This document shows positions 1,176 through 44,762 of a DNA stretch of 47,331 bases, one piece after another. The position numbers were made by a program, and so were the translations under genes. Source of the DNA: a virus; IMG/VR virus record IMGVR_UViG_3300046170_000212, positions 1-47,331 of that record. One strand, 5' to 3'. Under the pieces are notes generated by a model. That model was given only the letters and a program-made list of their open reading frames with translations, had not been told where the DNA came from and did not search any database. How positions within the stretch are numbered: position 1 is the stretch's first letter; every line of letters begins with the position of its first letter.

Positions 1176-1530
1176 TTAATATGTCCAAATTACATTTTGT
1201 GATTTATCTTTGTCGATGTCTACGTGTATAAAAGTGCTAGCAACACCTATACGATTAAAACCTACCTCTATCAACGCTGTAAGCATTTCAAATCTATCAT
1301 TAGATCTTACGCATGCCTACATCAATTGCTAAGCCTTTTAAATGCGAAGATGAATCAACACCACCAACTTTACGGTTGTGAGACTCAGTTCTGTATCCAC
1401 TAGTTACACGTATAGGCTTACCATATATCTCACGAGCTTTGTCTATCATATCTAAAAGCTCAGGATCCATAAGCTGACCACTACCTTGTATATCAGGTGA
1501 ATCAAATTCTTCGTAATTAAAGTATTTCAT
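1176..1530 (-). CDS. M15-family peptidase (endolysin), split by a one-base frameshift
   Basis: The family (VanY / L-alanyl-D-glutamate or D-Ala-D-Ala carboxypeptidase fold) cleaves peptidoglycan peptides and acts here as the lysin. Frame 1 (ATG 1530 to TAA 1300) gives SGYRTESHNRKVGG and SSHLKGLAIDV, with zinc ligands H63 and D70, and then stops. The next frame continues without interruption as CVRSNDRFEMLTALIEVGFN, then STFIHVD (third ligand, about H102), ending VIWTY at 1176. Removing one G of the GG at 1316-1317 gives DVACVRSNDRF and a 117-aa protein of normal family length. The ATG overlaps the holin stop (ATGA). As written, the 76-aa product lacks the last zinc ligand and should be inactive. 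Confidence 0.88.
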
Positions 1531-1686: not shown

Positions 1687-1872
1687 TTATTCTCCGCATT
1701 TTTTTGATGGATCATCTACTCTTCTCCAATCTTCTTTTTCAAACCAGTCTCTGAGTGTAGCTCCTTTTTTACGAGCGCCTTTGACATTTGTCTTAGACGA
1801 TCTTTTATATTTACCCTTTGCGCCAGCGGATTTTTTAGAGTTAACTAGCTTTTTTCTCTCCTCTTTACTCAT
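1687..1872 (-). CDS. Small basic protein (61 aa)
   Basis: It is Lys/Arg-rich (MSKEERKKLVNSKKSAGAKG) with the C-terminal motif LRDWFEKEDWRRVDDPSKKC. The DWF...DW...DDPSKKCGE pattern resembles short conserved proteins found in marine phages and large DNA viruses, function unknown. It lies directly upstream of the holin, whose ATG touches this stop. A nucleic-acid-binding role is possible from the charge only. Confidence 0.65.
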   Translation of the reverse strand: MSKEERKKLVNSKKSAGAKGKYKRSSKTNVKGARKKGATLRDWFEKEDWRRVDDPSKKCGE

Positions 1873-1877
1873 GCTTC

Positions 1878-2093
1878 TTATTTTAGAAGCAGGCTAAGCA
1901 AGGTTTTAGTTGTACCACCACCTTTTTGTTTATTAAGTGGAGATCTTTTTTCTTCTGCATGAGCTAAGCCTACTTTGTTACCATCTCCTTTACCAGAAAC
2001 AGCAGCAGTTCTATTGCGCATCTTATTCCAAGGTTTTGAGTGCATAACTGTAGCATCGCAATGCATCATAGGTGTTTTTTGTGAATATGCCAT
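1878..2093 (-). CDS. Hypothetical protein, Gly/Lys-rich (71 aa)
   Basis: It begins MAYSQKTPMMHCDATVMHSK and is rich in Met, His and Lys, with a GKGDGNKVG stretch and KGGGTTKTLLSLLLK at the end. Its ATG overlaps the TAA of the preceding small gene (TAATG). No domain is recognised. The style resembles the His/Met-rich small proteins around 34080-34830, so it may be a minor virion or packaging-associated peptide, but this is only a compositional analogy. Confidence 0.55.
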   Translation of the reverse strand: MAYSQKTPMMHCDATVMHSKPWNKMRNRTAAVSGKGDGNKVGLAHAEEKRSPLNKQKGGGTTKTLLSLLLK

Positions 2094-12674: not shown

Positions 12675-14135
12675 TTAATATCCACTTGAAAAAGTGTAAT
12701 TAGATGATACTGCAAAAAGCTCTTTAAAACCATTTGGATCAGTATTAGTGTCTGTAGATAATTTAACATTAGTAAAAAATCCTCTTATACCTGATATTTG
12801 ATTACCAAAGATTATTTCTCCTTGAGCCACAGGCGTGGTATTTATTAAATTAGCACAATATTTATTTTCTTTTCTATAGAAACCAGCTCTAAATATAGGT
12901 TGAACAACCGCATTAGAACCTGTGTTAGGTGGCACCGCTGAATCATAAGCGCCTTCGTTGTAGCTTAAAACCTGCGCAGTTGTATCTAAAACAAACCCAG
13001 CAGGATCACCAGCTCTACCAGGACCTGTTTCTCCAGATTTAAAGAAATCAACCTGCCAACCATTAGATCCTTCGTAATTTACAGTATTAAAAACCTTTAC
13101 ATTGCTAACTTGAGGATTAAACACAAACTCTATAGACGAAGGCGTAGATACTCCATAAAAGGTATTATAAATGTTATTTTGAGCATTGTGAAGATATAAT
13201 GAATCTCCAGATGTTGTATAGTGATTATTAGTTAAACTAAAAGATTGACTAGGTTTATAGCTAAAAAAGCTTATCCAACCTTGTGCTCTTTCGTCCCAAG
13301 ATAATGTGGGTTCATCTAGCTGAGCTGTTGATGAGACTGGTTGTAAAGATAATACATATTCTTTATTATATATATCCCAACCTCCAATAAGCTTACCTAG
13401 TCCAAACGCAGATGAATTAATGTTTAATATTTGATTTCTAAAAAATCCATTCATACCAGCTGCAGATATTTCAACTATTCCTTCAGGACCCAATTTTAAA
13501 ACTACGTTTTGATTTGAATCTACAAAATACTTATTATAACCATATACTGCAAAGCTCTCAGGGTTATTACCTATGCCATAATTACCTGGTATTGGTACTA
13601 TTTGTCCAATAACTGTTTTAAAAGAACTTACTGGCAAACCACCACCTTCAGCACTATATATAGCGTCTTTATCTATCAATGCTTTACTTACTTTAGCCTG
13701 CTGAAAAATAATTAAATTAGTATCTTCAGCGTATAGCTTTTGTATTGATCCTTGAGCTGGATCTAAGCTTTTAGTAATTTGTTCTGCTACACTAAATACA
13801 TTTGTTTGATTTACACCGGTTCTAGAGTTATATATTCCAGAATATATCATAGAATTTAATCTTATACTAGAATTAGGTTCTTGCTCTACTAAATAAGCTC
13901 TAACTCCAAAATCAACAGTGGTGTTATTAAAACCTCCTCTTATTCTAGATTCTTCTAAATACCAACAGTTCTTTAACTCTGCGTTATTTATTCTTGGATG
14001 TCCACCTATTTCTTCAGGTATACCAAAAGAGCCATTCCAAATTTGTCTAAGAAATGTTCCAACAACAGGATCTTCTGGTTCAAATCTTTTAAGCACATAT
14101 GTGTTAAAGTATTTTACTTCTAAAGTAGCAGCCAT
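12675..14135 (-). CDS. Putative tail structural protein (486 aa)
   Basis: It begins MAATLEVKYFNTYVLKRFEP and is rich in aromatic and Asn/Ser residues with predicted beta structure throughout (NGSFGIPEEIGG, YNKYFVDSNQNVVLKLG). There are no membrane segments. It follows the tail-stabilisation gene and the Gly-rich 137-aa protein and precedes the internal virion proteins. This fits a tail hub, nozzle or muzzle-type component of a short tail. No named family is recognised with certainty. Confidence 0.7.
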   Translation of the reverse strand: MAATLEVKYFNTYVLKRFEPEDPVVGTFLRQIWNGSFGIPEEIGGHPRINNAELKNCWYLEESRIRGGFNNTTVDFGVRAYLVEQEPNSSIRLNSMIYSGIYNSRTGVNQTNVFSVAEQITKSLDPAQGSIQKLYAEDTNLIIFQQAKVSKALIDKDAIYSAEGGGLPVSSFKTVIGQIVPIPGNYGIGNNPESFAVYGYNKYFVDSNQNVVLKLGPEGIVEISAAGMNGFFRNQILNINSSAFGLGKLIGGWDIYNKEYVLSLQPVSSTAQLDEPTLSWDERAQGWISFFSYKPSQSFSLTNNHYTTSGDSLYLHNAQNNIYNTFYGVSTPSSIEFVFNPQVSNVKVFNTVNYEGSNGWQVDFFKSGETGPGRAGDPAGFVLDTTAQVLSYNEGAYDSAVPPNTGSNAVVQPIFRAGFYRKENKYCANLINTTPVAQGEIIFGNQISGIRGFFTNVKLSTDTNTDPNGFKELFAVSSNYTFSSGY

Positions 14136-19439: not shown

Positions 19440-20666
19440 TTAGTGTTTTATCCATTTAGATTTACCTCTCATAACTTGAACTATTTCAGTAAGCTTTATA
19501 TTTGATAATCTAATCTTTGCGTTTCTAAGTTTAGAACTTTTATCTCTTCTAAGTCTTTGAACTAAATATTCAGGTTGATTAGCTCTAGTAGATACTATGT
19601 AGTGTAGTATAGAAGCGTATAGAGCTTCTTCTGCTAACTTAGGCACTTTAGTGTCCTTATCATATGCTAAACCGTCAGATATGTATTCTAATACAATAAG
19701 TCTATCAGCTAAGTCGCTTGAAAAAGACATTTTGCCTTCTCTTTCATTTATAGTAAAATAACCATTTACATTAGCGTATTGAGGATCTGTTCCGTAGAAT
19801 TGACCTAAATTCCAGTTGCCGTTGTAACCATAAGCTTCACTAAAATAAGCCCAATCGTCTAGATTTAAGTTGTTGTTTAATAAATTTATATTAAGGTTTT
19901 TCCAGCGTTCTTCTGTTATAGAAGTTCCCTCTACATTTTCACCAAAGTTATCTTGAACTGGAACACCTGTTGCATCTTGAACTGGCGTATTATAAGGTAT
20001 TGTAGTTAAATTGTTAGTTGGAAACAAAGGTCTTTTAACTCCAGCGCTATCTATCCAAGAAACTTTAACATAGTTTACATAGTCTTGAGGAAGTACGATG
20101 CTTAAACTAGCAGGCACAGTTAGCTCTTGAGAGTGTATACTTTTTAACGTATCATAGCTAAATTCTTGTAAAGATCTTTTAGCAAAAAACAAAACATCAG
20201 ATTTTTTAGCTGTTTGTATTAGTTTACCATCACCAACATAACCTACCATAAAATTATCTATAGCATCGCTAAGTGTTATGTATTGATACCCGCCATAGTT
20301 ATCTTCAACAGTGTCACCGTAAGCGTCTTGGTTTCCATAGTTTCCACCACTTAGTGCTTTTAATTGAACAACAACATATGTGTTTTGAGGAAGAATAACA
20401 GGTACAGCCTGTGTTCCTATGTATATTGTATTATTGTTTACCTCATATTGGCTAGTGTATTCAGCAAAACTACCTGGCAATCCAGTTGTACTAGTATATA
20501 GTTTAAAGTTATTTAAAGCATAATTAGTTTCTGTGTTATCGTATGAACCAAAAACTAAGTTTGTGTTAAAATTAGTAACAAATGAGCTTTGTCCAGCCGC
20601 GTCTGAAACTAAAAAAGGCTGTGCACCTTGATAATATTGTTGGTTTGTTTCTGTTACTAAACTCAT
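19440..20666 (-). CDS. Head-tail connector / tail-tubular-like protein (408 aa)
   Basis: This is likely the ring protein bound below the portal (the tail-tubular protein of crAss-like phages, P22 gp4 / T7 gp11-like role). The C-terminal half carries the helical pattern of the family: LPQDYVNYVKVSWIDSAG, then EEALYASILHYIVSTRANQP and a basic end with LSNIKLTEIVQVMRGKSKW. The N-terminal half is a variable beta domain (about 20-150). It lies 6 nt upstream of the tail-stabilisation gene and 2 nt downstream of the broken gene, in the usual order after the capsid gene. Confidence 0.78.
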   Translation of the reverse strand: MSLVTETNQQYYQGAQPFLVSDAAGQSSFVTNFNTNLVFGSYDNTETNYALNNFKLYTSTTGLPGSFAEYTSQYEVNNNTIYIGTQAVPVILPQNTYVVVQLKALSGGNYGNQDAYGDTVEDNYGGYQYITLSDAIDNFMVGYVGDGKLIQTAKKSDVLFFAKRSLQEFSYDTLKSIHSQELTVPASLSIVLPQDYVNYVKVSWIDSAGVKRPLFPTNNLTTIPYNTPVQDATGVPVQDNFGENVEGTSITEERWKNLNINLLNNNLNLDDWAYFSEAYGYNGNWNLGQFYGTDPQYANVNGYFTINEREGKMSFSSDLADRLIVLEYISDGLAYDKDTKVPKLAEEALYASILHYIVSTRANQPEYLVQRLRRDKSSKLRNAKIRLSNIKLTEIVQVMRGKSKWIKH

Positions 20667-20668
20667 TT

Positions 20669-21404
20669 TTAAGATTTTTCGTTAACTTCGACTTTAGCGG
20701 CCTCTTGAGCTGCTGCTTGTATTATAGTAGGGTTGTTTATTATTATACCACAGTATTTTAATATATTTACTACTAAATTAGTTTGCTCTGAGGCGTCTAG
20801 CTCAAAATTAGTAGACGTACTAGGATTGTATATGTATTGTCCAAGACTTTGACCTACAGTGAAACCCCAAGAAGGATTTAAAGGAGTAACTATACAATTA
20901 GCTACCGCTATATCTGGCAAAGGATTTATTGTGATATAAGGACTTGTTGACGTGTAGCTTTGAATTGTAAAATAGTGGATAATTTTCTGTTGGTGCCGTT
21001 AATTTTGATCTAGATTATTTTTATAATCTTTTTCTACTAGTCTATTGAGCTATTGAGTGTATTGTAGGTTGACCAGATGTACGTAACTCTATTTCAGCCT
21101 ATAGTATATATATCTACTGTGTTATAAACCAACCAGTTAAGTAGGTTCTATGTAAAAGAAGTCTCTTGCTCAAAAGGGTTAACTTTATAGATATATCTTT
21201 AAACATATCAAAAAATTCAGTATCATTTTGTATTGTTTTGATTTACTCTATTGACTTGATTTCCATCTGGAAAATAAGAATTAAATATTTCGTTTTGAAC
21301 CTGTCGGCTAAACTATTAAATTCAGCAGGTGTAACATATCCTCTTTGCTCTTTGTTTAATACATACAAGACTGTTTGATATACTGTGTTTACGTTTACCG
21401 CCAT
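20669..21404 (-). pseudogene. Head/neck protein gene broken by many small indels (about 245 aa if restored)
   Basis: The start is ATG 21404 (MAVNVNTVYQTVLYVLNKEQ). Reading on needs repeated frame changes: VQNEIFNSYFPDGNQVNRVN, then NDTEFFDMFKDIS, KVNPFEQETSFT, RTYLTGWFIT, TVDIYTIG, EIELRTSGQPTIHSIAQ, LVEKDYKNNLDQ, KLTAPTENYPLFYNSK, and finally YTSTSPYITINPLPD joined to the last open stretch (GFTVGQSLGQYIYNPSTSTN to EVNEKS). The shifts lie near 21301, 21226, 21187, 21151, 21120, 21095, 21053, 21003 and 20957. The pieces read as one well-formed protein, so the gene was recently intact or the sequence is locally wrong. It lies between the capsid and connector genes where a head-completion protein is expected. 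As written, only fragments of up to 83 codons are open. Confidence 0.7.
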
Positions 21405-21474: not shown

Positions 21475-22305
21475 TTATAGTTTTTTATCTATAGATTTAT
21501 AGATTTCAACACCTTCATCTGTTTTCAAGAAAGCAGCAAAGGCTGAATAAGGGTTTTCATCAAATGGAACGTTCATTAACTTTCTACCGTTTGATCCCCA
21601 AGTAAATGTTCTTTGATCTTGAGATAAGTTAATAATTCCAGCTTCAGTAGCTCTAATAGATAGATTTCTTAACTGAACATTATCGTCATTAGCTAAACTA
21701 ATAAATAACTGTGGATTACTTCTAGCAAAAAGAAGTAAGTCTCTTTTTATCTCTTTAGAACTCATGCTGTTTACCTTAGACCCTAACTCCACTCTTAGTA
21801 TAGCTTCTGCGTGATCTATATCTATATTTCTAGCTGCATTTAAAGCGTCAATTTGAAGATCTAGAATATCTAAATCATCAGAAGCTTCTTCAACAGCGCT
21901 AAATTCTTCATACGTTTTTCCTCTTAAAGGGTGGTATAAAGAAAGTAGTTTTTGTAGGTTTTGTTTTTCTTTTGAAACCTTTAAAGTTCCATCTCTGAAT
22001 GTAATATGACCAAGTGTTGCCTCTCCCTTTTGTTCTTCTACGAAAGGTGAAGACTGATTAGTTGCATATCTAATTTCTTTTTGATTACCTGTATTAGAAT
22101 CGAAATAAAGCAAGGAATGCTTAGACGTGTGCCTACTTGGTATAGTGTGTGTTAATGGAGTTTTATTACCTCTTAAATAATAAACCCTATCTTTTATCTC
22201 CCAGCTCGGTTTAGCTGGTTTTACTTCTTTTTTTACTGGTGCTTTTTGCACTACAGTTTCTTGAGGTGCAACCTCAATAGCTTCTGCTTTAGCTTTTTTA
22301 GCCAT
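21475..22305 (-). CDS. Hypothetical head-associated protein (276 aa)
   Basis: The N-terminal 30 residues are Lys/Ala/Val-rich and probably disordered (PVKKEVKPAKPSWEIKDR). A small beta-type segment follows (YYLRGNKTPLTHTIPSRHT), then helical sequence with acidic stretches (EEASDDLDILDLQIDALN). The gene sits immediately after the capsid gene and its terminator and before the connector genes. A capsid auxiliary or head-completion role is therefore likely but not proven. Similar proteins seem to accompany this capsid type in marine phages (recollection only). Confidence 0.65.
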   Translation of the reverse strand: MAKKAKAEAIEVAPQETVVQKAPVKKEVKPAKPSWEIKDRVYYLRGNKTPLTHTIPSRHTSKHSLLYFDSNTGNQKEIRYATNQSSPFVEEQKGEATLGHITFRDGTLKVSKEKQNLQKLLSLYHPLRGKTYEEFSAVEEASDDLDILDLQIDALNAARNIDIDHAEAILRVELGSKVNSMSSKEIKRDLLLFARSNPQLFISLANDDNVQLRNLSIRATEAGIINLSQDQRTFTWGSNGRKLMNVPFDENPYSAFAAFLKTDEGVEIYKSIDKKL

Positions 22306-34475: not shown

Positions 34476-34604
34476 TTAGTCGTGTTTATTCATTGCTTCG
34501 GCTTTACCTTTTTCCCAAGCATCAATTTTTTTATTTTTATTTATGTCTATAGCCTTAAAATGCTTGTGAGCCGGAGAACCATGATGTTTTTTATCATATT
34601 TCAT
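34476..34604 (-). CDS. Small protein with a single EF-hand-like loop (42 aa)
   Basis: ATG at 34604 to TAA at 34476. MKYDKKHHGSPAHKHFKAID is followed by the loop DINKNKKIDAWE, which matches the Ca-binding EF-hand spacing (D1, N3, N5, K7, I8, D9, E12). It then runs to EAMNKHD. The frame continues open upstream of 34604 to a TGA overlapping the previous gene, so a non-ATG start is also possible. A half EF-hand can bind calcium as a dimer or mimic dockerin/EhaA-like loops; seawater calcium is abundant. Function is unknown. Confidence 0.5.
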   Translation of the reverse strand: MKYDKKHHGSPAHKHFKAIDINKNKKIDAWEKGKAEAMNKHD

Positions 34605-34635
34605 ATCACCTGCTAATTTTGAAATATGCTTTTCA

Positions 34636-34830
34636 TCAGCAGGTCATTTTTTTGTCGCTATGCCCGTGGTGATCATCATAAAGAACATCACGCTTCAAAT
34701 AGTCGATATGAGCAGCGTCATCTCTTTCAGATGCTTTATAGTTTTCTTTAGTAACTTTTGTATCTGCATGATCCATACAACATCTAGCGTTACCCGTGTA
34801 TTTTCCGTAATGTCCTTTTTGGTATCCCAT
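34636..34830 (-). CDS. His/Asp-rich small protein (64 aa)
   Basis: It begins MGYQKGHYGKYTGNARCCMD and continues with HIDYLKRDVLYDDHHGHSDK. It is rich in Tyr, His, Asp and two adjacent Cys, with metal-binding potential. It starts 1 nt after the stop of the frameshifted gene at 34832. Style and position group it with the other small His-rich genes of this island. Confidence 0.6.
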   Translation of the reverse strand: MGYQKGHYGKYTGNARCCMDHADTKVTKENYKASERDDAAHIDYLKRDVLYDDHHGHSDKKMTC

Positions 34831-35708: not shown

Positions 35709-36374
35709 TTAATATTGACCTATTGTACTAAATAGGTTCGTGAAATTTCTATTTGAATTTACTTGTTCTTCTGTCAATCCAGCATGTCTAGCATCTACAC
35801 CTCCAACCAGCATACCTCTACCGTGCGTAGAAAGACTACCTCTGCCGTCCATAAAAGTCCCAACACCTGTGCTTCCGATTCTATAAGGATCCGGCGCGTT
35901 GCCAATAAAAGAACCTCTACCTCCAGTAGCGTAATCCAGTGTGGCTACAGCTCTTCTAGGCTCAACAGGTTTTGGAGCTCTTGAAGCAATTCTAGGATCC
36001 ATTAAAGAAGCATCAACGCTAGGCATTGAAAAGTTTTTAGAAAGCGTACTTGAATCTAAGTTAGATTGTACCGATCCAACTGCACCTTGCTCAATAACAG
36101 GTTTAACCATAGATTCTGAGGCACTTGGTTGCATTTGCGCTTTCATAGCTTGAACTTCTGCTTTGTTATAAGTTCCTTTTCTACCAAAATTGTTACCAAG
36201 GAGTGATGCTATTTTTGACATACCTCCACCCAATAAAGAACCAATTCCCTTTCCTCCGAATACACTTTGAAATGAATTTGCTTTTCCTAAAATGTCACCT
36301 CCGCCTATTCTAGAACCGGCTAAACCTGCCGCACCTGCTATAGCACCTCCAAAATTTACTGGACTTTTGCTCAT
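35709..36374 (-). CDS. Gly/Ser-rich hypothetical protein (221 aa)
   Basis: The N-terminus is a glycine-rich, hydrophobic segment (MSKSPVNFGGAIAGAAGLAG and then SLLGGGMSKIASLLGNNFGR), reminiscent of internal virion or membrane-inserting proteins. The rest is Ser/Arg/Gly-rich, low complexity, with TGGRGSFIGNAPDPYRIG and GRGMLVGGVDARH. The ATG overlaps the stop of the winged-helix gene (ATGA). A virion role is possible from composition only. Confidence 0.6.
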   Translation of the reverse strand: MSKSPVNFGGAIAGAAGLAGSRIGGGDILGKANSFQSVFGGKGIGSLLGGGMSKIASLLGNNFGRKGTYNKAEVQAMKAQMQPSASESMVKPVIEQGAVGSVQSNLDSSTLSKNFSMPSVDASLMDPRIASRAPKPVEPRRAVATLDYATGGRGSFIGNAPDPYRIGSTGVGTFMDGRGSLSTHGRGMLVGGVDARHAGLTEEQVNSNRNFTNLFSTIGQY

Positions 36375-36812
36375 CTGTTTTTATCTTTGTTTACGTTATA
36401 AATAGCTTTAGTCATAACCTTGTCAGTGTATGTTTCGCCATTAATTATCTTGTTTCGTCTACCTGTATTTATATCCTCTTCGCCAAGCATTATTCTGTAT
36501 ATTCTACTTATAAGTTGCTTGCCTTTAAAAGACACTTTATATATATGGTATTTCTGAGTGGTTCTGTTTCTATGTCTCCAGACTTTAATCCAGTCTTGTT
36601 TCAACAGTCTATTCCATCTGCGGTTGTCCCAACTATAAGAATAAACACCCATTTCAAAGTCTTTCTTAGTGAAAAAACTCCATACAATCAAGGTATATAA
36701 GAAGTTCTAGATCTGCATCGTTTAAATCATTATTACGACAGGCCCATTTTCTTATAATGCGGTAGTGTTTCAAGAGGTTTAGTTCTCTAATGTCACTAGC
36801 GGCTAATCTCAT
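36371..36812 (-). CDS. Winged-helix (MarR-like) regulator, frame broken at a T6 run (about 146 aa restored)
   Basis: Translation from ATG 36812 (overlapping the groES stop, ATGA) gives MRLAASDIRELNLLKHYRII, then LNDADLELLIYLDCMEF, and hits a stop after six T (A6 on the plus strand, 36672-36677). With five T it continues as TKKDFEMGVYSYSWDNRRWN, then VWRHRNRTTQKYHIYKVSFK and LISRIYRIMLGEEDI. Segment order (helices, then RWNRLLKQDW, then the hairpin RHRNRTTQKY) fits a winged-helix domain of MarR type, which binds DNA as a dimer. The 106-codon frame with its own non-ATG start is part of this gene. The control target is not visible. Confidence 0.72.
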
Positions 36813-37069
36813 AATACAACGACTATGTCACCTGATTTTATAACGTGATAAGATTCTTTATCAACTTCTATTTTGTGGCCAGCGTGACGATCAAAGTATA
36901 TTACATCATTTGGTTTAACACCTGCTACTTCGTCTCCTGCAGAAACTACTGTAGCCTGAATATAACGTATATCGTCTCTTTGGCTTTCAGCAAGTAAGAG
37001 ACCACCAGTTGTTTTGGTAGTCCCTTCTTTTGCTTTATTTATTATTAAGTTTCTACCTATTGCTTTCAT
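36809..37069 (-). CDS. groES: GroES-like co-chaperonin (86 aa)
   Basis: The Cpn10 fold caps GroEL. The sequence has [13 protein letters not shown], the mobile loop TTKTTGGLLLAESQ (hydrophobic tripeptide LLL where E. coli has IVL), VVSAGDEV, VKPNDVIYF, HKIEVDKESYHVIKSGDIVV. The roof loop between the last strands is short, as in T4 gp31. The ATG at 37069 is used rather than the in-frame TTG at 37072. It overlaps groEL by 17 nt, and its stop overlaps the winged-helix start. In bacteria groES precedes groEL; here it follows. Confidence 0.9.
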   Translation of the reverse strand: MKAIGRNLIINKAKEGTTKTTGGLLLAESQRDDIRYIQATVVSAGDEVAGVKPNDVIYFDRHAGHKIEVDKESYHVIKSGDIVVVL

Positions 37070-38609
37070 CAATTCTTAAATTATTAATTACACAATCAGT
37101 AGATAATATTGTTGTTGCTACAGAAGCTGCATTTTGAAGAGCGCTCTTGGTGACTAGTAGTGGATCTATAATACCCGACTTAATCATATTTACCATTTTT
37201 CCTGTAACCACATTGTAGCCTTGTCCTTTTCTAGTAGGTGTTTCAACATCTTGAACACCTGCGTTTTCAAGTATAGTTTCAAAAGGAGCTTTAATAGCTT
37301 CTAATAAAACTGCTTCACCTAGTGACTTAGCTGTTATATTTGTTGCAGCGTTTAATAGAGCAATACCACCACCAGGAACAATCCCTTCTTTGATAGCAGC
37401 TTTAGTAGCACAGATAGCATCTTCGACTCTATCTGTTTTTTCTTTTAATTCTATTTCTGAATTAGCACCTACTTTAACTATTGCTATTTTAGCAGATAGC
37501 ATGGCTAATCTTTTTTCAAGCTTTATAAGCTTATTAGGATTTTTTTCTTTTAAAAGCTTAGACTTAATTTCATCTATAACTTCTATAACCTCTTGCGGTG
37601 ATTCTTCTACTTGAAGTATCGTGTCTTCGTGTGATGTAACACTTTTAACACAACCACCCAAATGCTCAGGCTGTATCATTTCCATATCATCGCCCAAGTC
37701 TTCATTTATAATAGTAGCACCAGTAAGCAGTGAAAGGTCTTGAAGCATCTGTTGTTTATTAATTCCATAAGTTGGAGCATCAATAACATTTACTTTAATG
37801 TTGCCTTTCATTTTATTCATAGCTAGAGCTGATAAAACACCTTGTTCTAAATCGCCTATAATAAGCAAAGGTTTGTTGTTTTTTATTACGTACTCTAGCA
37901 CAGATTGAATCTGCCTTATTGTATCAACTGGTGATTCTAGTAAAAGCACTAATGGATTTTCTAGTTCAGCAGTTTTAGTTGCTTGGTTGGTTACAAAGTG
38001 TGAGTTCTTAAGACCTTTGTCGTATTGAACACCATCAACAACTTCTACATGTGTTTTGCCATCTGAAGCTGTTTCCATCATAACTACGCCTGTGTTATCT
38101 ACAGATCTAAAAGCATCTGCAATAATTTTGCCAAGCACAGGATCATTGTTTGTAGATATAGTAGCTATTTGATCTATCATGCTACCTTTTACATCTACTG
38201 TTAATGACTTTAGATATTTAACTGTTTTATCAACAGCTGAGTTAATACCGTCTTTTAACTCTCTTGAGTTTGTTTTATCAGCTACTTTATAAGCTTCTTG
38301 AAGTATTGCATGAGCAAGTACTGTAGCTGTTGTGGTTCCGTCACCGGCTTCTTGTACCGTTTTGCGAGCTGCTTCTTTTAAAAGCGTAGCACCCATGTTT
38401 TCTACTGGGTCTCGCAGTATTATAGAATCTGCCACTGTTACACCGTCTTTGGTTATAATTGGTCTTCCAGTGTGATCCTCTAACATAACGCATTTGCCGC
38501 TAGCACCAAGAGTGGAGCTAACAGCTTGCGTTAGTTTTTCAATTCCTTTAAATACATTAACCCTGGCATCTTCACCGAAGTTAAGGTTTTTGACTATTGC
38601 GTCTGACAT
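37053..38609 (-). CDS. groEL: GroEL-type chaperonin (518 aa)
   Basis: The ATP-driven folding machine. The frame is intact from ATG 38609. Residues [12 protein letters not shown] (about 88-99, E. coli D87 region), the hydrolytic D397 in [13 protein letters not shown] (E. coli D398), and [10 protein letters not shown] (G413-415) are conserved. The apical domain has [15 protein letters not shown], where Y199 and Y203 of E. coli correspond to L and H, so GroES/substrate contacts differ, and [18 protein letters not shown]. The protein ends at [10 protein letters not shown], without the Gly-Met C-terminal tail. Likely folds a phage virion protein in the host cytoplasm with the GroES encoded next to it. 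Confidence 0.95.
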
Positions 38610-41662: not shown

Positions 41663-44600
41663 TTACCCTATTATAACGTACATTATGTCTGAATCAGGAG
41701 GTGTTAAAGCATCGTACTGCGCCTGAGTAAGTGTTCTTATTTCTGTTACAGCTGTGTTTGAGCCTCCAGCTGTAGTTCCCTTTACAAAATTAGCAGTAAA
41801 ATTAGTTACATATTTTTTATTTACAGCGCTTGAATCAAAGGCTGGAATACTAGGATCACCTAGATTATCTACAAGTGTTACATCATCTGTAAATTTAGCT
41901 CCTTTAGCTGTTATATTTCCAGAAACAGCAATGTCACCAGAAGCATTTTGAGATATAGCACTATTTTCTAATTGAGAATCGTCTTCATTCCATTTTAATA
42001 TTTGGCCATCTGTAAAATTAGAGTTATTTTTAAGGAATATATCTTGAGTTCCTACATTGGTTAAATCCTGTAAACCCCCGCTTGTACTTATATTTTTTAC
42101 AACTCCAGCGTTTGGATTAGCCCAAGTACCATCACCTCTTAAAAACGTAATAGAGCTACCACCTGTTGGTACATGACCTACGTTAGCCGCTCCATTATAT
42201 GGAAAAGATTCTATAGTAACAGAACCTGTAGCGTTTGTATTAGATGTTACTGCATTTCCTGTGGAAGCAGTTGCGGAAGTTGATGAAGTTAAAGCGGCTA
42301 CACCTTGTTCTGATTGAACAATAGACCAGTTTGCTTCTGTAGATGCATCAGCTAAAGCTGAGGTTACACCAATAACAGAATCACCTACAGATAAAGAAGT
42401 TCCAATACAATAAAAAGATCCTGCTGTAGCTACTGCGTAATAGTCTCCTACAGCAACAGCTATTCTAGTACCTGTTCCACCTGGGCAGTTATATAAAAAT
42501 GATCCAGAGTTTGCTCCAGAAAGAATTTCACCGGTAGTAGCATCAAAAGTTCCTTTAAAAGTTAAACCACCCGCAGCGACATTATCAACGTAATCTTTTG
42601 TTGTAAGAGTCGTAGCGCCATCACCTCCATCAGTTGAAGCAGAAGTTGCTTTACCAGTTATAGCTACATTAGATGCTATACTTACAACAGCGCCGTTGTC
42701 TGTAATATTTGAATCGCCTATAGTATTGCCATCTGGTGTGAACTTAGCTATTTTATTTAAATTACCACTACCACCTATGCTACCAGAAGAAGGATTGATC
42801 CACTCTACGTTACTTCCATCAGAAGAAAGAATTTGACCGACAGTACCCATATTGCCACCACTATCAAATAGCTTTTCATTAACTGTTATGTCATCGTTAA
42901 AAACTGAAGTGCCTTCTACTACTAAATTATTTTCAATAGTCGTGCTACCTGATTGTATTACGATTTTATTTGCAGCATTGGCCTGCAATACCATAGTTTG
43001 AACAGCGTGAAAATATTTTATTGCCCCATCTCCTACGCCAGGTCCATCAAAGTTAAGTATGCTTTGTGATGATCCGTTTGTTGTTGTTATTCTGATTTCT
43101 GAATTACCAGAACTAGTAACGTCTAATTCACTTAAAGGTGTAGAAGTTCCAATACCTAAGTTACCGTTGTTATTATCCCAATATAAATCAGCGCTGCTAC
43201 TTAGTGAAGATGTAGTGTTCCAAAAAGCTACTCTAGTTGCTTGACCACTTCCACTTACTGGAGTAACAGCAGGAACCCATGCTGTACCTGTGGCATTTCC
43301 ACTACCATCGTTTCCAGTAGCTGATAAATAATACTGAGCTACTCCTGGGCTGGCGTTGCTATCTAAGAAAGCACCATCTACTTGTAGGTCGCAGTTATAA
43401 AAACGACCTCCAGCGCTTGTTAATGTTAATTTTAAATTAGATAAACTAGGAGGAGCATTATTAAGATCTGCGTACAAATTAAGACCTTGAGATGTGGTAT
43501 AATTTAAAGCAGCATTAATCCCGTTTTGATCTCCAAAAATAATATTATCTCCAAAAATAGCTTGAGATTCAAAACTACTTGTAGCATTGACTAATAATGA
43601 ATCAGATGACGTTGTACCTATTGTTGCGTTTTCAGATGCGGTTAAACTCGCAACGCTAAAATCTGCTGTAGTAGAGTATTCTCCAGGGTTTTGCCCGTCA
43701 AATATTATAGTTGAATCACCTATTGTTTGAGCTCCAGTGAAAATTGGTAGAACATTGTTAGTCCCAGCAGCGGATGTAGTCACACCGTTTGCAGCAGTGC
43801 TACCGTCTATTGTTAAAGTATTCCCACTAGTAGTTAGGGTTATATTACCAGTTCCTTCTATGTTTAAAGTAGAAGGTGTTACCACTTGCTATTATGCTTG
43901 ACTGCGTAGGCACTGCTATAGTGTTGAATATATCTTGAGAAGAGCCAGGATCTGTATTAGTTAGTGTAGCAGTTCCATTTGAATATGATACTGAAATACC
44001 AGTTCCGCTATTATCTATATTACCAATTCCAGGTGTTGTTAAATCAGCTAAACCAGTGGATACTTCTACAACTAAGAAGTTAGCTTGAACCGCGGGGTCT
44101 GCTGTTGTTTGAACTATAACAGAGTCACCTGGCGTAAGAGGAACAGAAGGATCTCCAAAGAAGTCACCAGCGGCGGTTACAACATAGTAATCTCCAGCTG
44201 TTACTGGTGTGTCTGTATATAAATCAGTTGTTAATGGAGAGTCTAAAGCTCCAGTGCTTGCATTAAAGCCTCCAACTAAAGTAGTTGCACTTGATAAAAC
44301 GCTTTGTACAAAAGCTGTAGTGGCTAGAGTATTATCGTTGTTATTTGGAGCAGAGGTAGCTGTTTCAGCATAAGCAAAACCATTATTATCTCTAGCTACT
44401 AGTTTGTCTTTATCTGTAGTAGCATTAGTCCAAGAGTCTGTAGCATCTGCTTTTATAATAGATTCTCCAGGCGTTGTTGTTGTGTCTATTATTATATAAT
44501 CTCCTTGCGTAAAGTTAGGCGCGTCTCCAACTCCAAACTTAGTCCATTCAGACACACCCGGACCTGTTTTAAGGTACGCACCGTTTAAAGAAGGGGTAGT

Positions 44601-44762
44601 ATCACCAGTTACAGCAACTATCATACCTTCGTATACGTTAGGAATTGATCCATCACTTAATTGCGAATGCTCTGGTGTTGTTAACCTCGCGTCTAAAGGA
44701 GCTGATTTAAGTACTTCAAAATTTTGAGAGAAATTAAAACTACCTGTGTCTCTTATTGCCAT
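41663..44762 (-). CDS. Large tail fibre, about 1032 aa, split by a one-base frameshift
   Basis: Part A runs from ATG 44762 (NFSQNFEVLKSAPLDARLTT) and part B to the stop at 41663. Part A ends out of frame at GNTFYFKHRRNW. Removing one T of the TT at 43873-43874 gives SGNTSTLNIEGTGNITLTTS in frame with part B, whose nominal GTG start is then not needed. Both halves hold the same duplicated module (GDYYVVTAAGDFF in A and GDYYAVATAGSFY in B), supporting one protein. Part B also has the shared modules NLNKIAKFTPDGNTIGDSN and GTVGQILSSDGSNVEW. The end is LTQAQYDALTPPDSDIMYVI, a common fibre-tip sequence in Bacteroidota phages. Attaches the virion to the host surface. Confidence 0.85.

What the first reader, a model, noticed from the sequence alone, without database searches (positions are those of the whole stretch)
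20957..21304. Gene shredded by about nine closely spaced frame changes
Between ATG 21404 and the end near 20669 the reading frame must switch repeatedly near 21301, 21226, 21187, 21151, 21120, 21095, 21053, 21003 and 20957. Yet each segment reads as conserved protein, in a gene expected to be needed for head completion, while flanking genes are intact. This density of indels without matching substitutions is not normal pseudogene decay. Local low-quality sequence is most likely; a genuine indel hotspot or a strain mixture is less likely.
Basis: partly seen in the sequence, partly recalled or inferred. Interest (0 to 1): 0.6.

Follow-up and report, generated by a model that had tools for sequence, protein, structure and literature searches.

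The report
Sequencing-error patch in phage gene
A phage tail-ring gene appears broken by about ten small insertions and deletions, but relatives carry it intact and this same record has stray frame errors in four or five other genes, so the break is almost certainly a stretch of poor sequence rather than biology.

Summary
On the minus strand the gene 21404..20669 changes reading frame about ten times (7-12 depending on the penalty) between about 21305 and 20935. The pieces are true fragments of one protein: they score 521 against a homologue profile, versus 189 +/- 10 for shuffled sequence. The gene encodes a head-and-packaging virion protein (PHROG 14543) with the fold of the phi-crAss001 tail-barrel ring proteins. 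At the same place 79 of 80 related contigs have one open frame; the other has a single stop codon. In the best-conserved half of the cluster, codons show the same purifying pattern as intact relatives, so this is not pseudogene decay. The genes next to it are intact, but the same record has isolated frameshifts in at least four other genes (about 1310, 1893, 34641, 36672, perhaps 43872). By an equal test, 329 related loci have 6 in 3,548 kb. This fits an incompletely corrected long-read consensus with one roughly 370-nt stretch of near-raw quality. No hairpin, striking repeat or RNA family is there. Verdict: sequence or assembly artefact. No reads are available here, so the platform and the final proof remain inferred.

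The parts
20669..21404 (-). Ring/head-tail connector protein gene (PHROG 14543 family) with its frame broken in the middle
   Evidence: Homologues in 80 contigs at the same place, 79 open; PHROG match of the intact homologue, E 2.7e-27; fold match to 7qoj chains D, E, F
20935..21305 (-). Cluster of about 10 frame-changing indels (7-12) with one or two in-frame stops; about 370 nt
   Evidence: Frameshift-aware alignment and shuffle control
1176..1530 (-). Peptidase-like gene with one isolated frameshift near 1306-1316 (same kind of error elsewhere in the record)
   Evidence: Homologue in L166, 117 aa, continuous in one frame; two frames in the window
1687..1967 (-). Small gene with an isolated frameshift near 1893-1896
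   Evidence: 10 loci give collinear matches in two frames
34590..34830 (-). Small gene (89-aa homologue) with an isolated frameshift near 34641
   Evidence: 37 loci
36371..36812 (-). 146-147-aa gene with an isolated frameshift near 36672, beside a run of six T
   Evidence: 65 loci
41663..44762 (-). Two overlapping fibre-like ORFs (305 and 740 aa) that look like one gene with a frameshift near 43872 (weaker case)
   Evidence: 2 loci give collinear matches in two frames; reading across the junction

Best explanation
The gene is intact in the real virus. The deposited record carries a stretch of about 370 nt whose bases come from uncorrected or hardly corrected sequence, most likely one or few noisy long reads, or a stretch that polishing skipped because of low coverage or strain variation. 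The rest of the record is a better but imperfect consensus with stray small insertions in four or five other genes. Shown: the indels, the intact homologues, the undiminished codon constraint in the conserved half, the extra frameshifts and the low base rate in relatives. Inferred: the long-read origin and the reason that this stretch was left uncorrected.
For: About 10 indels in 370 nt, yet the fragments are conserved protein. 79 of 80 related contigs, and five contigs in bacterial bins, have an open gene. In the conserved part of the cluster the amino-acid-changing fraction is 0.24 for the window and 0.26 on average for relatives, rank 12 of 38. Isolated frameshifts near 1310, 1893, 34641 and 36672, perhaps 43872, in unrelated genes. 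By one equal test the window has 3 frame-broken places in 32.2 kb, and 329 related loci have 6 in 3,548 kb (P 3e-5; 1e-3 without the cluster). [quoted passage not shown] here about 11-13 per 100 kb outside the cluster. No hairpin (z 0.10), no striking repeat, no Rfam element.
Against: No reads, coverage or platform information can be seen. No second copy of the same virus was found to show the intact sequence directly (two 35-mers, no match). The isolated errors are mostly insertions while most in the cluster read as deletions, so two error processes may be involved. In the variable half (21150-20935) the amino-acid-changing fraction is higher than in 36 of 38 relatives, so substitutions or misplaced frames may be present there too.
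Confidence: 0.94

Rival explanations
1. A mixture of strains that differ in the variable part of this gene made the consensus caller produce an indel-ridden hybrid. This is still an artefact, a special cause within the best explanation, but one driven by real diversity.
For: Nucleotide identity among relatives falls to 56-69% over about 21200-20800, among the least conserved parts of the region compared.
Against: Three of the indels (21305, 21231, 21191) lie in the well-conserved part, where identity among relatives is 80-83% and lengths hardly differ. It does not explain the stray frameshifts elsewhere.
Confidence: 0.2
2. A true pseudogene: the ring protein gene has been lost in this lineage, its role taken over by another protein or a helper.
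For: The frames are broken in the sequence as deposited.
Against: Codon constraint in the conserved half is as strong as in intact relatives. About 10 indels without matching excess substitutions there is not neutral decay. Only one of 80 relatives shows a defect, a single stop (L037). Other genes of the record are broken as well.
Confidence: 0.03
3. A recoded gene in which the ribosome changes frame or skips bases many times, as with translational bypassing elements.
For: The fragments are conserved protein.
Against: No relative has the interruptions; shifts are of mixed sign and size with no shared motif seen; no structure above chance; one or two in-frame stops remain even after the frame changes.
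Confidence: 0.01

Closest known systems
Indel errors of long-read (viral) metagenome assemblies, e.g. VirION, PMC6487183
   Same: Frame-breaking small indels, shortened gene calls, stray errors left after polishing; the rate outside the cluster (about 11-13 per 100 kb) lies between polished long-read (22.8) and short-read-based (under 2) assemblies
   Different: One 370-nt stretch has about 2,700 per 100 kb, near single-read quality; the platform of this record is not known
Crassvirus tail-barrel ring proteins (phi-crAss001 gp43, gp40, gp35, gp34; PDB 7qoj)
   Same: Predicted fold of an intact homologue matches chains D, E, F (E 4e-7 to 7e-7; TM-scores 0.53-0.61); helices and a beta-rich domain; similar length
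   Different: Sequence identity only 12-14%; no sequence match in the PDB; which ring it would form is not known

Membership tests
Sequence/assembly artefact (unpolished indels) | Intact homologues in independent assemblies | tested here: met
   79 of 80 loci open at the same place, plus five contigs in bacterial bins
Sequence/assembly artefact (unpolished indels) | Codon constraint preserved between the indels | tested here: met
   0.24 versus 0.26 amino-acid-changing codons in the conserved half; inconclusive in the variable half
Sequence/assembly artefact (unpolished indels) | Similar errors in other genes of the same record | tested here: met
   About 1310, 1893, 34641, 36672, perhaps 43872
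Sequence/assembly artefact (unpolished indels) | Low coverage or disagreement of reads over the stretch | not testable with these tools
   No reads available
True pseudogene | Relaxed constraint: raised amino-acid-changing fraction | tested here: not met
   Conserved half at rank 12 of 38 relatives
Programmed frameshifting or bypassing | Interruptions conserved in relatives, or a shared signal or structure | tested here: not met
   None in 79 relatives; fold z-score 0.10
Crassvirus-type tail ring protein | Ring-protein fold of 7qoj | tested here: met
   Foldseek E 3.9e-7, probability 1.00, TM-scores 0.53-0.58 on a model of an intact homologue (pLDDT 79)
Crassvirus-type tail ring protein | Assembles as a dodecamer between portal and tail tip | not testable with these tools
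   Needs a virion structure

The most novel reading that the evidence does not exclude
The indels are real and the gene is read through by repeated frame changes, or the virus tolerates a shattered ring protein because another protein replaces it.
Probability: 0.02. Interest if true: 0.8.

Novelty: not a real feature. Interest (0 to 1): 0.05.

Why it matters
It matters for curation only: one deposited virus record has a poor stretch and several stray frameshifts, so gene losses, split genes or pseudogenes called from it should not be trusted. Counting frame breaks against relatives is a simple test that could flag such records in viral contig collections.

Tried and rejected
Another copy of the same virus was sought with exact 35-mers in viral contigs: none found, and none in genome contigs beyond a 92% relative, L331. 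Hairpins, repeats, Rfam families and tRNAs gave nothing. A stop-codon reassignment was considered and dropped: long genes in the same window are open under the standard code, and frames, not only stops, change. Sequence search of the PDB found no relative of the ring protein; fold comparison did. L037, the one relative whose ring gene is not open, has a single stop and no indel cluster, so it is not a second case.

Full report
WHAT WAS CHECKED. The window is a 47,331-base virus record of a tailed phage related to many uncultured viral contigs and more distantly to Flavobacterium, Cellulophaga and Maribacter phages. Its genes lie mostly head to tail on the minus strand. Between an intact 276-aa gene (21475-22305) and an intact 408-aa gene (19440-20666) lies the stretch in question. 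The three-frame translation shows an open start (21404 to about 21305), an open end (about 20935 to 20669) and a patchwork between.

THE BREAKS. A profile was made from 38 intact homologues and the window's DNA was aligned to it with frame changes allowed. At a middle penalty there are ten indels and one in-frame stop between 21305 and 20963. With penalties from mild to severe the number runs from 12 to 7, and those at 21305, 21231, 21191, 21099 and 20963 are always there. When only the 21305-20937 stretch is shuffled, keeping dinucleotides, the score falls from 521 to 189 +/- 10. Between about 21150 and 20935 the protein is variable among relatives, so the exact places there are uncertain.

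WHAT THE GENE IS. Intact homologues belong to PHROG 14543, head and packaging, virion structural protein. A predicted structure of the homologue in L034 (pLDDT 79) matches the phi-crAss001 tail-barrel chains 7qoj D, E and F (E 4e-7 to 7e-7, probability 1.00). The barrel consists of dodecameric ring proteins stacked between portal and muzzle (PMC10172136). A head-to-tail ring or connector role is therefore likely; the assembly state is inferred.

RELATIVES. At the same place, just upstream of the 408-aa gene, 79 of 80 related loci (73 distinct open-frame sequences) have one open frame of 231 to 408 aa; the other, L037, has a single stop. Five of eight further contigs found in bacterial genome bins also show an open homologue; the other three gave no call with the simple motif used.

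NOT DECAY. Codon by codon against relatives, the conserved part of the cluster shows 0.24 amino-acid-changing codons for the window and 0.26 on average for intact relatives (rank 12 of 38). Before and after the cluster the window is equally ordinary. In the variable half it is at the high end, 0.59 versus 0.51, above 36 of 38 relatives, which could be misplaced frames or extra base errors. A pseudogene that had gathered ten indels by drift should carry many substitutions in the conserved part too.

NOT THE ONLY BREAK. A scan of the whole window with 7,108 ORFs of related contigs (44.8 kb covered) found the cluster and isolated frame changes near 1306-1316 (2 loci), 1893 (10 loci), 34641 (37 loci) and 36672 (65 loci), with a weaker case near 43872 where two overlapping fibre-like ORFs look like one gene. 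Those that can be read closely look like small insertions, one of them beside a run of six T. The same kind of scan, on a smaller query set and with at least three supporting loci, gives the window three broken places in 32.2 kb and 329 related loci six in 3,548 kb; the chance of three or more is 3e-5, and of the two isolated ones alone about 1e-3. Some related loci overlap because they come from the same contig, so the base rate is approximate.

EXPLANATION. A virus with a broken ring gene and four or five other broken genes, with constraint intact where it could be tested, is much less likely than a record with indel errors. [quoted passage not shown] Here the rate outside the cluster is about 11-13 per 100 kb and inside it about 2,700. 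The likeliest picture is a long-read or hybrid assembly, partly polished, with one stretch of near-raw sequence. Why that stretch was left is not known; low coverage or strain variation (part of it is poorly conserved) are the candidates. The deletion-rich cluster and insertion-rich stray errors hint that two processes may be at work.

ALTERNATIVES. Programmed frameshifting or bypassing has no support: no relative has the interruptions, signs and sizes are mixed, no motif was seen and folding is no better than shuffles. Repeats, Rfam families and tRNAs offer nothing. No second copy of the same virus was found, so the intact sequence of this very virus was not seen, and reads could not be inspected.

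Noticed in passing
window 1306-1316, 1893-1896, 34641, 36672, 43872: Isolated frameshifts in other genes of the same record, mostly looking like single extra bases; the last is a weaker case.
   Followed up: yes
L079 (contig IMGVR_UViG_3300047157_000162, 129,537 bases), near 210 and 2310: A relative with two frame breaks, at least one in a neighbouring structural gene; perhaps another record with consensus errors.
   Followed up: partly
L194 near 13620-13710; L253 near 18060; L056 near 3090: Other single or paired frame breaks found in the base-rate scan of relatives.
   Followed up: no
L037 4571-4573: Ring protein gene with one in-frame TGA and otherwise open; real stop or single base error not decided.
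   Followed up: partly
window 37053-38609: The phage carries a GroEL-like chaperonin gene (PHROG 5725, E 6e-134), with relatives up to 98% identical in other viral contigs.
   Followed up: no
L331: A contig 92% identical in the neighbouring 276-aa protein lies in a bin named Aliivibrio sp.; probably a phage contig placed in the wrong bin.
   Followed up: no
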